Shown: positions 17,876 through 21,158, numbered from the stretch's first letter. The stretch is DNA of 35,612 bases from a virus (IMGVR_UViG_3300017969_000001:1-35612); one strand, 5' to 3'. The notes: a model not told the origin generated them from the letters alone. Program-made: numbers and translations.

Positions 17876-18142
17876 ATGCTGAAATTCCAAAACGTTTGCG
17901 GCTCTTTCACCGATACCCCTGGCAATCCCTACGGGGTTATTTGGGACCGTGTTGACCATCTTCAAGCGCCAGCTATCGGTGAGCTTAGGCGCCTGGCGTC
18001 CCGTATCCTTCGAGACCTAGCGGAACCCGGCGCCGTGCTGCCGGAAGGGGTTACCGTCGCTGGGGTTCGTCACCTAGCGCGCATCGTCCACCAGTTGGAC
18101 GGCAGCGAGCTAGTTGAAGTGATCGGGTGGGTATCCGACTAA
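17876..18142 (+). CDS. Second early gene, unknown (88 aa)
   Basis: It follows the first early gene with a 1-base gap and is followed by an intrinsic terminator, so the two form a short transcription unit. The N-terminus is a beta-like stretch (LKFQNVCGSFTDTPGNPYG). Residues 30-80 look helical (GELRRLASRILRDLAEPG, VRHLARIVHQLDGSEL). No family or active-site motif is recognised. Function is unknown. Confidence 0.68.
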   Translation: MLKFQNVCGSFTDTPGNPYGVIWDRVDHLQAPAIGELRRLASRILRDLAEPGAVLPEGVTVAGVRHLARIVHQLDGSELVEVIGWVSD

Positions 18143-18170
18143 CCGTAAACCCAAACAATCAACCGAGGGA

Positions 18171-18203
18171 GGGGCGCCGCACGGTGCCCCTTCTTTGTTT
18201 TTG
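18171..18203 (+). terminator. Intrinsic terminator after the first early unit
   Basis: GGGGCGCC pairs with GGTGCCCC (one G-U pair) around a GCAC loop, followed by the T-rich tract TTCTTTGTTTTTG. It lies 28 bp after the stop codon of the second early gene. Genes beyond it need read-through, anti-termination or a second promoter. Confidence 0.85.
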
Positions 18204-18590: not shown

Positions 18591-18635
18591 CCCTTGTTCG
18601 CCCTTCTGAACGTAGTGAAGAAGGGCTCACAAGGG
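18591..18635 (+). promoter_or_regulatory. Conserved early hairpin, copy A
   Basis: Outer arms CCCTTGT and ACAAGGG pair perfectly, as do inner arms GCCCTTCT and AGAAGGGC, around the invariant apex core GAACGTAGTGA (18608-18618). The arm sequences are unrelated to those of copies B-D, yet pairing is kept, which is strong evidence for a selected structure. The start codon of the next gene (18654) follows 18 bp later. Confidence 0.8.
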
Positions 18636-18653
18636 GGCCAGGGAGGGAAGCCG

Positions 18654-18851
18654 ATGAAACCGCAAACCTTTGAGCAATGGTACGCTGCCTGCGACCGGAT
18701 CTGTCTCCATGCCTTCGGCATGGGTGTTGAGGATTTCGCTGATGGGCCGTCTGCAGACTCCTATGAGTCTGGTGAGTCGCCCCGTGAATACGTCTTTGAA
18801 ACGTTGCCAGAATACGACGACATGCTTCGTCACTTCTTGGAGGAATCATGA
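18654..18851 (+). CDS. Unknown small acidic protein (65 aa)
   Basis: The frame is open further upstream, but I choose ATG 18654 (MKPQTFEQWYAAC) because GGGAGGGAAG precedes it and the hairpin lies just before. The product is acidic with a helical N-terminus and a Ser/Asp/Glu-rich centre (FADGPSADSYESGESP). Its TGA overlaps the next ATG (ATGA). Small proteins with this look, an FxxWYxxxD start and an acidic C-terminus, are frequent in phage early regions, but I cannot name a family or function. Confidence 0.68.
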   Translation: MKPQTFEQWYAACDRICLHAFGMGVEDFADGPSADSYESGESPREYVFETLPEYDDMLRHFLEES

Positions 18852-19063
18852 GTAAAACCAAGTACTTTCGTTTGTACGCCAAAGAGTCTGGCGCCAGCAG
18901 GTTTCGACCGGTCGATTGGTCTAGCGGAGCTACAGTTATCAACCTGATTTATGCGACGCTCTTCCCCGAAGGGGAAGCCAAGCGGTTGCGTGAAAGCCTG
19001 CCCGAACTGGCGGATCTCAACCCAGGCTGGGCTTTCGAAGTCCGACCGGTGAGCAACGGCTAA
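18848..19063 (+). CDS. Unknown small protein (71 aa)
   Basis: The start ATG overlaps the preceding stop and the ribosome binding site is TTGGAGGAA. The product begins as a beta strand (KYFRLYAKESGASRFRPVDW) and continues as a helix (KRLRESLPELADLNPGWAFE). Sequences of the type YFRLYAKxxGxxxFRPVD occur in several phage small proteins of unknown role. There are no cysteines and no membrane segment. Conserved hairpin B follows 8 bp after its stop. Confidence 0.68.
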   Translation: MSKTKYFRLYAKESGASRFRPVDWSSGATVINLIYATLFPEGEAKRLRESLPELADLNPGWAFEVRPVSNG

Positions 19064-19071
19064 AACCCTAC

Positions 19072-19106
19072 GGTAAGCCCCCTGAACGTAGTGAAGGGGG
19101 CGTACC
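19072..19106 (+). promoter_or_regulatory. Conserved early hairpin, copy B
   Basis: GGTA pairs with TACC, then an A-G mismatch, then GCCCCCT pairs with AGGGGGC around the apex core GAACGTAGTGA (19084-19094). Flanks ACCCTAC and CTAGAACCCACAA are shared with copies C and D. It lies 28 bp upstream of the next start codon. Confidence 0.82.
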
Positions 19107-19134
19107 TAGAACCCACAACCACAGAGGAGCAGCC

Positions 19135-19965
19135 ATGGATGTCTACAAGTACATCAAGCGTCGTTGGAACGGCGTGTCTTTCGTCACTACCTCGCCGATC
19201 GATGGCAGCAAGGTCTTGAACCTTGTGTCTCTTGGGTCGGGCAACACCAAGACCGGGAACATGATCCAGACTTGGCACCTTCCCTACGGGAAGGACCCGA
19301 TCGAAGCCCGGCGCGGCGGATCCGGTGACCGCGGCGTTTGCGGTGACTGCCCGCACCGGGCAAAGCCCGGCCAAAAGGTAGGATCCTGCTACGTCATCGG
19401 CGTAGCTATCCGGGGCGTTCATGATGCCTACCTTCGTGGCCGCTACCCTGACCTGGCTGATGTCGCTGAGGAACTGAACAAAAGCCGAATCGCTGTGCTT
19501 GCTAACATCGGCAATGGACGCCAGGTCCGATTGGGGTCCTACGGTGATCCTACCGTGATGGGTTCGACCATGGCACAGGCGCTGACCGCCCTCGCTAGCT
19601 CGTGGATGGGCTACACTCACCAGTGGCGCAACGAGCATTCACAGTGGGCCAAGAATCTGCTGATGGCGTCTGCCGATAGCGTCTCCGACGCTACTAGGGC
19701 GAGCCGGGACGGCTGGCGCTACTTCGCCGTTTATCCAAAGGATATTGCCCCGAAGGATGCGCTGTCGCAGTTGCGTGCTAACGGCGACAAGGTCGCCAAG
19801 TGCCCGGCCAGCTATGAAGCTGGCCAGCGCGTCACTTGCTCGACTTGCCCCATGAAATGCAGCGGGGCCATCAGCAACCGCCACAACGTGGCGATTCAAG
19901 CCCACGGCGCACCAAGCGTTATGGCCCGTTACCGTGAGAATGTCGCTGGCAACTGGCAATCCTAA
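19135..19965 (+). CDS. Conserved cysteine-rich phage protein of unknown function (276 aa)
   Basis: Central features are TGNMIQTWHLPYG (about 38-50), a first cysteine group CGDCPHR...GSCYV (69-86), ALASSWMGYTHQW (152-164), and a second group AKCPASYEAG...CSTCPMKCSG (222-243). The spacing suggests one or two metal or Fe-S sites. I believe this family is widespread in phages (possibly DUF7227, from memory, unchecked). RGRYPD, VRLGSYGDP and WRYFAVYPKD are other fixed-looking motifs. It is flanked by conserved hairpins B and C, so it is its own expression block. A metal-dependent enzyme or nucleic-acid-binding protein is plausible, but function is unknown. Confidence 0.8.
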   Translation: MDVYKYIKRRWNGVSFVTTSPIDGSKVLNLVSLGSGNTKTGNMIQTWHLPYGKDPIEARRGGSGDRGVCGDCPHRAKPGQKVGSCYVIGVAIRGVHDAYLRGRYPDLADVAEELNKSRIAVLANIGNGRQVRLGSYGDPTVMGSTMAQALTALASSWMGYTHQWRNEHSQWAKNLLMASADSVSDATRASRDGWRYFAVYPKDIAPKDALSQLRANGDKVAKCPASYEAGQRVTCSTCPMKCSGAISNRHNVAIQAHGAPSVMARYRENVAGNWQS

Positions 19966-19971
19966 CCCTAC

Positions 19972-20008
19972 GGTATCCCCCCCTGAACGTAGTGAAGGGG
20001 GGGTTACC
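19972..20008 (+). promoter_or_regulatory. Conserved early hairpin, copy C
   Basis: GGTA pairs with TACC, a T-T mismatch follows, then seven C and T pair with A and seven G around the apex core GAACGTAGTGA (19985-19995). Nearly identical to copy D. It begins 6 bp after the preceding stop codon and ends 28 bp before the next start. Confidence 0.82.
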
Positions 20009-20036
20009 TAGACCCCACAAACCAACGGAGGCCATC

Positions 20037-20414
20037 ATGGCTCATGAAACCTGCTTTGATCGTATCGACGAGGCCCTTGAAAACCGGGCTAGCGATTTTG
20101 AAACCTACATGAACAGCAGCGATGCCTACGAAGAGGGCTGTGAGAATGCTGGCATCGGACCATTCTACGAATACGGCCTATGCTTCGACGTGGTGACGTC
20201 GAGCGACGACGATCACGAGGAACTGCCGGTCGAATACTGCCGTTTCGTCATGTCTACCGGAGGCCCAGGTGATGAGATCCGGTTTTTCCCTTCGGGACGC
20301 ATCGAATACTGGTTCCTAGACTGGTTCGATGGGGCTTGCCGCGACGTCACCAGTGAAGACTGGGCGCAGTGGCTATGGGATACCTTCGATGACCTAGGGA
20401 TGCTGCCCTTCTAG
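20037..20414 (+). CDS. Conserved small phage protein (125 aa)
   Basis: The frame is open into the hairpin, but ATG 20037 (MAHETCFDR) has a good ribosome binding site (ACGGAGG). The product is acidic and contains EYGLCFDVV, a GGPGDEIRFF strand turn and YWFLDWFDGACRDV, motifs I know from many uncharacterised small phage proteins near replication genes. No catalytic residues are evident. Function is unknown. A 68-bp gap containing a small hairpin (GGCGGA/TCCGCC) separates it from the next gene. Confidence 0.75.
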   Translation: MAHETCFDRIDEALENRASDFETYMNSSDAYEEGCENAGIGPFYEYGLCFDVVTSSDDDHEELPVEYCRFVMSTGGPGDEIRFFPSGRIEYWFLDWFDGACRDVTSEDWAQWLWDTFDDLGMLPF

Positions 20415-20482
20415 ACAACGCCCGGCGGAGCGTATCCGCCCCAGCCGTAACGGGGGATCGGCGCCCTACACTTGGAGAATAG

Positions 20483-20647
20483 ATGGATATCGAGCGCATT
20501 GAACGTGAACTAGAGGAGGTCAAGCGGGCCGTGGATAACTATATGGCGGCAGGGCCGTCCGTTTGCTGGGGCGAGAACTACCACAAGGCCTGCTACAGGG
20601 AGGCCATGCTTACTCGGAAGCTGGCCGAAGTGAAGGGGGAGAAATGA
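20483..20647 (+). CDS. Unknown small helical protein (54 aa)
   Basis: The ORF runs from ATG 20483 (ribosome binding site TTGGAG) to TGA 20645-20647, overlapping the next ATG. Residues 1-20 and 35-54 look helical and charged (DIERIERELEEVKRAV, YREAMLTRKLAEVKGEK), with a short aromatic loop (SVCWGENYH) between, suggesting a helical hairpin. No family is recognised. Confidence 0.62.
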   Translation: MDIERIERELEEVKRAVDNYMAAGPSVCWGENYHKACYREAMLTRKLAEVKGEK

Positions 20648-20865
20648 GCACCATTTTCAAGTGCGATGAGTGCGGCGGTACTGAGGTCTATGAGCTGGTG
20701 TGGGTCAACCCCAACGATGGCGATACAGTGGAGGGGCCTGGCCGCACTTGGTGTGACGACTGTCAGCAAGAGGGATCCAGCATCACCGCCGTGCGTGGAG
20801 GCGATGCTCCATCCATGTTTAGCTCGCTGGCCATCGCACTCAAGCCTGATTTTACCTTCGGCTGA
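20644..20865 (+). CDS. Small zinc-ribbon protein (73 aa)
   Basis: Two CxxC pairs (CDEC at 7-10 and CDDC at 37-40) with an intervening beta-hairpin (TEVYELVWVNPNDGDTVEG) form a typical zinc ribbon. The rest is a short tail. I choose ATG 20644, which overlaps the preceding stop (ATGA). Such proteins bind nucleic acid or partner proteins. The specific role is unknown. Conserved hairpin D begins 8 bp after its stop. Confidence 0.72.
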   Translation: MSTIFKCDECGGTEVYELVWVNPNDGDTVEGPGRTWCDDCQQEGSSITAVRGGDAPSMFSSLAIALKPDFTFG

Positions 20866-20873
20866 CACCCTAC

Positions 20874-20910
20874 GGTATCCCCCCCTGAACGTAGTGAAGG
20901 GGGGGTTACC
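20874..20910 (+). promoter_or_regulatory. Conserved early hairpin, copy D
   Basis: The same structure as copy C: GGTA/TACC, a T-T mismatch, then seven C plus T pairing with A plus seven G around GAACGTAGTGA (20887-20897). Flanks ACCCTAC and CTAGAACCCAA are retained. The next start codon is 41 bp downstream. Confidence 0.82.
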
Positions 20911-20951
20911 TAGAACCCAACCCAAACAACCACATCCCACTGGAGGAAAAC

Positions 20952-21158
20952 ATGACCATTATCGACACCATCATGGACGAGATCGACACTGCTGATGTGC
21001 TGGAAGCTGCCATCGAAGGCGTGCTGAATGCCCTGATGCCCGAGATCGAAGACGAGATTGAATGCATGATCGAGCACGGCGAGGCCCCGGAGGATGACCG
21101 TGAAGAAATGCTGTCTGCTGCTCGGGAGGCTTTGGCTGGCAGGGTTACCGCATCATGA
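20952..21158 (+). CDS. Unknown acidic protein (68 aa)
   Basis: It starts after a good ribosome binding site (TGGAGGAA). The product is strongly acidic and helical (TIIDTIMDEIDTADVLEAA, PEIEDEIECMIEHGEAPEDD), with about 20 Asp/Glu in 68 residues. Highly acidic small early proteins can act as DNA mimics against restriction or nucleoid proteins, but this is only a composition argument. Its TGA overlaps the next ATG. Confidence 0.7.
   Translation: MTIIDTIMDEIDTADVLEAAIEGVLNALMPEIEDEIECMIEHGEAPEDDREEMLSAAREALAGRVTAS

What the first reader, a model, noticed from the sequence alone, without database searches (positions are those of the whole stretch)
18591..20910. Four covarying hairpins with an invariant apex TGAACGTAGTGAA upstream of early gene blocks
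Copies lie at 18591-18635, 19072-19106, 19972-20008 and 20874-20910, each in one of the few real gaps between early genes and each 18-41 bp before a start codon. The arms differ (CCCTTGT/ACAAGGG plus GCCCTTCT/AGAAGGGC; GCCCCCT/AGGGGGC; seven C against seven G) but remain paired, so the structure is selected. The apex core GAACGTAGTGA is identical in all four. It can itself fold as U-A, a tandem G.A/A.G pair, A-U, C-G and a GUA triloop; tandem sheared G.A pairs and GNA triloops closed by C-G are known to be unusually stable. No T tract follows, so they are not intrinsic terminators. They could be binding sites for a phage RNA-binding protein, processing sites that define mRNA 5' ends, or ssDNA hairpin signals. 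I know of no described element with this apex; start-associated sequences of cluster K mycobacteriophages are only a loose analogy.
Basis: partly seen in the sequence, partly recalled or inferred. Interest (0 to 1): 0.88.

Follow-up and report, generated by a model that had tools for sequence, protein, structure and literature searches.

The report
Capped leader hairpins before phage genes
Four early genes of this phage are each preceded by a very stable folded hairpin with the same tip, and the same tip caps hairpins placed the same way before early genes in many unrelated phages, which suggests a reusable messenger-RNA leader that travels with each gene.

Summary
Four hairpins with apex TGAACGTAGTGAA lie on the + strand at 18591-18635, 19070-19108, 19970-20010 and 20872-20912, 18-41 nt before start codons, with no T tract. 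Copies 3 and 4 share a 53-bp repeat, so only three arm sets are independent. The apex is not unique. The 15-mer CTGAACGTAGTGAAG occurs in at least 119 viral contigs, and 72 of 114 distinct places have at least 5 paired arm bases (control 0.65%). In several unrelated phage groups the element has one build: capped stem, small bulge, second helix, A/C-rich spacer, start codon, on the sense strand. The cap is a family: GA tandem mismatch, two covarying pairs, 3-4 nt loop. At orthologous genes in relatives it is replaced by GNRA or plain loops (and by UUCG in comparable leaders), which argues for structural stability rather than apex recognition. The closest published relatives are stem-loops upstream of CR3/CR4 in cluster M mycobacteriophages; one precedes a homologue of the window's 276-aa gene. 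Best reading: an autonomous mRNA leader hairpin that insulates and protects each early cistron and moves with it as a cassette. A contig lacking exactly one repeat plus the copy 3-4 cassette fits this. The mechanism is inferred.

The parts
18591..18635 (+). Hairpin copy 1: CCCTTGT/ACAAGGG, 2x2 internal loop, GCCCTTCT/AGAAGGGC, cap GAACGTAGTGA
   Evidence: RNA -29.3 kcal/mol, z -4.2
19070..19108 (+). Hairpin copy 2: GCCCCCT/AGGGGGC, A.G mismatch, GGTA/TACC, CTA/TAG lower stem, same cap
   Evidence: z -5.2
19970..20010 (+). Hairpin copy 3: CCCCCCCT/AGGGGGGG, T.T mismatch, GGTA/TACC, same cap; within a 53-bp repeat shared with copy 4
20872..20912 (+). Hairpin copy 4: same sequence as copy 3
18636..18653 (+). 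Spacer with GGGAGGGAAG before the ATG of gene 1
19109..19134 (+). A/C-rich spacer (ACCCACAACCACAGAGGAGCAGCC) with Shine-Dalgarno sequence
20011..20036 (+). A/C-rich spacer (CCCCACAAACCAACGGAGGCCATC) with Shine-Dalgarno sequence
20913..20951 (+). A/C-rich spacer (ACCCAACCCAAACAACCACATCCCACTGGAGG...) with Shine-Dalgarno sequence
18654..18851 (+). Gene after copy 1 (65 aa, phrog_519, unknown function)
19135..19965 (+). Gene after copy 2 (276 aa, phrog_2554, weak DUF7227)
20037..20414 (+). Gene after copy 3 (125 aa, phrog_36747)
   Evidence: read from 20040 in that scan
20952..21158 (+). Gene after copy 4 (68 aa, no family)
20018..20919 (+). 902-bp unit (cassette between copies 3 and 4 plus one copy of the 53-bp repeat) missing from near-identical contig L072; the exact breakpoint within the 53-bp repeat cannot be placed

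Best explanation
Each hairpin is the 5' leader element of the single early gene that follows it, and it acts in the mRNA. A strong stem closed by a very stable cap (tandem sheared G.A plus a GNA-type triloop) folds on its own as it is transcribed. The A/C-rich stretch after it stays unpaired and leads into the ribosome-binding site. The likely effect is to isolate that site from upstream RNA and to shield the 5' side of each cistron from decay, so that every early gene carries its own expression unit. Gene, leader and hairpin can then be inserted or lost together by recombination between the repeats. Shown here: the structure, its sense-strand orientation, its placement before starts, its wide recurrence, its cap exchange at orthologous genes, and a contig that lacks exactly one repeat plus cassette. 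Inferred: that it is transcribed and folds in vivo, and its effect on translation or stability.
For: Arms around the fixed apex pair in 72 of 114 distinct viral places, against 0.65% for random C..G-flanked 13-mers. In intergenic hairpins with at least 5 bp, the downstream gene is on the cap strand in 52 cases and opposite in 4; class B has a divergent gene upstream, so there the element can only be a leader. The distance from cap to start codon is narrow: medians 53, 34, 40 and 47 nt in the four groups; the spacer after the stem is 64-70% A+C where it could be measured. At orthologous genes the hairpin stays while the cap changes: the class A YAVG gene has GA cap, GAAA, GUGA, plain GUA and CAAC loops; UUCG caps are seen in comparable class A leaders. 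In class B the SprT-like gene has GUA, AUA, UUAA, GUAA and GUUA loops, and another gene alternates between the GA cap and plain UAAA/UUUAAA hairpins. GNRA and UUCG are known extra-stable RNA loops (own knowledge). The inner cap pairs covary. The 276-aa homologue in phage Estes also has a strong stem-loop leader, of different sequence. L072 lacks exactly one repeat plus the 3-4 cassette.
Against: G-U pairs are rare in the stems (1 of 530 in class A, 2 of 525 in class B, none in the window copies), which is unusual for a selected RNA and would also suit a DNA palindrome. No transcript, promoter or decay data exist: the promoter scan found none near the window copies. The identical GAACGTAGTGA in unrelated phages is more sequence-specific than stability alone requires. 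The rows of the 49-sequence alignment were chosen for pairing, so its covariation score is inflated.
Confidence: 0.5

Rival explanations
1. The cap is the binding site of a phage or host RNA-binding protein that controls the early genes together, like the T4 gene 43 hairpin operator or a nut/put-type antitermination site.
For: Identical cap in all four window copies and in many unrelated phages; a bulge or internal loop commonly 5-9 bp below the GA pair; the T4/RB69 gene 43 operator is a hairpin about 40 bases before the start with a conserved loop (PMC3014915).
Against: Relatives replace the cap with unrelated stable loops at orthologous genes; one hairpin per gene does not fit antitermination; no co-occurring protein was identified.
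Confidence: 0.2
2. The hairpins are processing sites (RNase III or another nuclease) that cut the early transcript between genes and leave each cistron with a defined 5' end, as in the T7 early region.
For: Located between co-directional genes, about 20-35 nt after the upstream stop; long stems with asymmetric bulges in classes A, B and D.
Against: Window stems are short and interrupted; class B first copies have no upstream cistron to separate.
Confidence: 0.14
3. The element works as DNA: a hairpin or cruciform used in replication or recombination, or a mobile REP-like palindrome.
For: The same 13-mer caps a widespread bacterial repeat GTCATTC-TGAACGTAGTGAA-GAATCT and lies antisense inside replication-initiator genes of other phages; G-U pairs are nearly absent; DNA GNA triloops closed by C-G are very stable (own knowledge).
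Against: Strong sense orientation before starts in classes A-D; UUCG and GNRA caps are RNA-type; the window copies lack the REP-like flanks; the cap orientation in replication genes is the opposite one.
Confidence: 0.12
4. Intrinsic transcription terminators or attenuators.
For: Strong GC-rich hairpins in gene gaps.
Against: No T tract after any copy, and absent from the terminator-like list; class B copies sit in 5' leaders.
Confidence: 0.03

Closest known systems
Stem-loops upstream of conserved repeats CR3/CR4, cluster M mycobacteriophages (Estes, Aziz, Rey, Bongo)
   Same: Strong stem-loops with varied arms in the gaps before small early genes at one end of the genome, close to the start codon; gene insertions come with their own repeat copy (PMC7953290); stem-loop leader of the phrog_2554 homologue in Estes.
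   Different: The CR-like sequence ACACGGAGAAGGG is absent from the window beyond chance; the Estes loops seen are not of the GA-tandem type.
Cluster K start-associated sequences (SAS/ESAS)
   Same: Repeats at the starts of a subset of non-structural genes, with inverted repeats upstream of about half of them (PMC3203893).
   Different: SAS motif not found beyond chance; ESAS repeats are conserved in sequence and were reported not to support RNA pairing, the reverse of what is seen here.
Intercistronic hairpins with extra-stable loops in phage T4 (CUUCGG) and the T4 gene 43 operator
   Same: Stable capped hairpins near translation starts; [quoted passage not shown] The CUUCGG comparison is own knowledge.
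   Different: A different cap; no known binding protein here.
Bacterial REP-like repeat GTCATNC-TGARCGNAGYGAA-GNATCT
   Same: Identical 13-nt apex in many copies; the degenerate consensus is own knowledge.
   Different: Mostly a 4-bp stem with fixed flanks and varied placement; the window copies have long free arms and a fixed position before genes.

Membership tests
Cluster M CR3/CR4 stem-loop leaders | Stem-loop with variable, paired arms before early gene starts | tested here: met
Cluster M CR3/CR4 stem-loop leaders | Conserved CR sequence (ACACGGAGAAGGG, as read from Estes) between stem and start | tested here: not met
   12 weak matches, 12.0 expected, none at these leaders
Cluster K SAS/ESAS | 13-bp GGGATAGGAGCCC within a few nt of the start | tested here: not met
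   fewer matches than chance, none near these starts
Cluster K SAS/ESAS | Inverted repeats conserved in sequence without RNA covariation | tested here: not met
   arms differ and stay paired
Intrinsic terminator | T tract directly after the stem | tested here: not met
Any Rfam 15 family | Covariance-model score above the gathering threshold | tested here: not met
REP-like GTCATTC..GAATCT repeat | Flanks GTCATNC and GNATCT around the apex | tested here: not met
RNA-binding protein operator (T4 gene 43 type) | A protein binds the cap and represses translation | not testable with these tools
   needs binding and reporter assays
RNase III processing site | Cleavage within the stem in early mRNA | not testable with these tools
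   needs RNA end mapping

The most novel reading that the evidence does not exclude
GARY-NNN(N)-RYGA within a U-A closed stem is a distinct RNA recognition module: one conserved partner, most likely a host factor since the phages share few genes, reads this cap in the leaders of early genes of unrelated phages, and loops such as GNRA or UUCG are degenerate replacements where the partner is absent.
Probability: 0.15. Interest if true: 0.85.

Novelty: new variant of a known kind. Interest (0 to 1): 0.57.

Why it matters
It defines, with covariation, a hairpin cap that no Rfam family covers and that phages of several unrelated groups place before early genes, and shows it being exchanged with the classic extra-stable RNA loops at the same positions. 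That makes a testable rule for how phage early genes carry their own leader, a marker for annotating start sites and gene cassettes in uncultured phages, and a candidate stable cap for designed RNA leaders.

Tried and rejected
DNA search of the phage collection with the 4-kb region and with the hairpin blocks found nothing useful. A flank pattern CCCTACGGTA..TACCTAGA found only L072 plus chance hits. The first simple ORF caller gave a false antisense picture and was replaced by a trained one. Whole-arm folding of sense against antisense strands was confounded by the A/C-rich spacer and was replaced by a symmetric count of G-T and A-C pairs, which gave no support for RNA over DNA. Published-sequence search for the apex strings returned only primers and noise among the 40 papers listed. 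Searches for a described GNA-plus-tandem-GA cap in phages found none. A terminator role and membership in SAS/ESAS, CR3/CR4 or Rfam families were tested and not met.

Full report
CHECK OF THE OBSERVATION. The window is a single 35,612-base viral record. The core GAACGTAGTGA occurs exactly four times, all on +, and nowhere else within one mismatch of TGAACGTAGTGAA. Folding confirms four hairpins with z-scores between -3.4 and -5.2. Copies 3 and 4 sit in a shared 53-bp repeat, so only three independent arm sets exist. No T tract follows any copy. All four are 18-41 nt before a start codon. The downstream genes are small and mostly of unknown function: phrog_519, phrog_2554, phrog_36747 and an orphan.

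THE APEX IS NOT UNIQUE. The arms beyond the fixed C-G pair are unconstrained by the query, yet 72 of 114 distinct viral places have at least five pairs, against 0.65% for random controls, with wholly different arm sequences. Three contexts emerged. First, in classes A (marine, TATATA stems), B (GTTTAAAC stems), C (this window and L072) and D (several further groups), the hairpin is intergenic, sense-strand and just before a start codon. Second, in cellular genomes the same 13-mer is mostly the tip of a REP-like repeat GTCATTC..GAATCT. Third, in many prophages it lies antisense within replication-initiator genes. The second and third are treated below as separate.

ARCHITECTURE AND COVARIATION. 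Scans with arms fixed and apex free showed that class A nearly always carries TGAACGTAGTGAA, while class B carries structured variants. Across classes the cap is GA-RY-loop(3-4)-RY-GA: GAAC..GTGA, GAAT..ATGA, GAGC..GCGA and GAGT..ACGA, with loops GTA, GAA, ATA, AAA, AGA, ACA, GTAA, GTTA, GTAT, TTAA and others. In a 49-row alignment all nine pairs change on both sides in some rows (132 double-change cells, 28.7 in shuffles). The rows were selected for pairing, so this shows covariation of sequence under pairing, not pairing itself; one search covers the latter. A covariance model found 1-5 copies per record in all 30 viral records tested, most of which contributed to it. No Rfam family matches. 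A bulge or small internal loop commonly interrupts the stem 5-9 bp below the GA pair. After the stem comes an A/C-rich spacer (64-70% A+C where measured) and the start; the distance from cap to start is narrow in each class.

WHAT LEVEL, AND IS THE CAP RECOGNISED? Intergenic hairpins have the following gene on the cap strand 52 times and opposite 4 times; these counts include relatives, but every class agrees. In class B the upstream gene is divergent and the first hairpin follows promoter-like hexamers by about 20 nt, so it is a leader there (the promoter reading is inspection only, since such matches are as frequent as in shuffles). Grouping leaders by orthologous downstream gene gives the most informative test. 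In class A, the same gene in relatives has a GA cap, a GAAA or GUGA tetraloop, a plain GUA triloop or CAAC; another gene alternates between GAACGTAGTGA and a plain UUUA loop; UUCG caps occur in comparable leaders. In class B the SprT-like gene shows at least six caps, and another gene alternates between the GA cap and plain hairpins. Position and stem are conserved; the cap is exchangeable. This favours intrinsic stability over reading of the apex, and RNA over DNA, because GNRA and UUCG are RNA-type stable loops. Against RNA stands the scarcity of G-U pairs in the stems, which I cannot explain beyond selection for maximal stability.

MODULARITY. Contig L072 matches the window at 99.9-100% but lacks exactly one 53-bp repeat plus the genes between copies 3 and 4, as expected from recombination between them; an assembly artefact is not excluded. 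In cluster M mycobacteriophages, gene insertions are likewise reported with their own repeat copy (PMC7953290).

RELATION TO KNOWN ELEMENTS. Homologues of the 276-aa protein occur in 147 phage records of Mycobacterium, Gordonia, Klebsiella, Microcystis, Ruegeria and others. In cluster M phage Estes the gap before that gene, and the other gaps examined beside it, hold a strong stem-loop followed by an ACACGGAGAAGGG-like sequence; the published text mentions stem-loops upstream of CR3 and CR4. In L029, an otherwise different contig, a phrog_2554 gene follows a hairpin with exactly the window's cap. So this works like the cluster M leaders, but the CR sequence is absent and it is not a member. 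SAS/ESAS fails both defining tests. The T4 gene 43 operator shows that a hairpin about 40 nt upstream can be a protein-binding operator, which keeps the recognition rival alive.

VERDICT. A real, selected, widespread leader hairpin with a distinctive cap, best read as an autonomous leader element of cassette-like early genes. The kind is known; I found no description of the cap, its covariation, its breadth or its exchange with classic stable loops in the papers searched. Transcription, in vivo folding and function remain untested.

Noticed in passing
L010, L013, L014, L028, L044, L122 and about 25 other viral loci: The reverse complement TTCACTACGTTCA with paired arms lies inside replication-initiator genes of different families (DUF1376/primosomal, O-like, DnaD-like), 31 of 32 times in the same frame (SLRS), usually beside short repeats. 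Arms vary as S..E or P..G codons while staying paired. Possibly an origin hairpin within the gene.
   Followed up: partly
L124-L242: GTCATTC-TGAACGTAGTGAA-GAATCT is a very widespread REP-like repeat in Bacteroidota, Cyanobacteria, Ignavibacteria and others, sometimes as inverted pairs 40-60 bp apart; no paper naming it was found.
   Followed up: partly
window 20018-20919 against L072 3667-3719: A near-identical contig lacks exactly one repeat unit and the cassette between copies 3 and 4 (902 bp in all).
   Followed up: partly
L286 (phage Estes), gaps between genes: All eight gene gaps folded hold strong stem-loops with different arms; loops include GCAA- and UACG-type tetraloops.
   Followed up: no
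class A leaders, e.g. L025 9607-9660: Class A leaders show no Shine-Dalgarno sequence but a conserved CAAACTTCAATTCAAT stretch before ATG; host unknown.
   Followed up: no
window 18164-18197: An intrinsic-terminator candidate (15 pairs, TTTGTTTTTG tail) just after the gene ending at 18142, bounding the region before copy 1.
   Followed up: no
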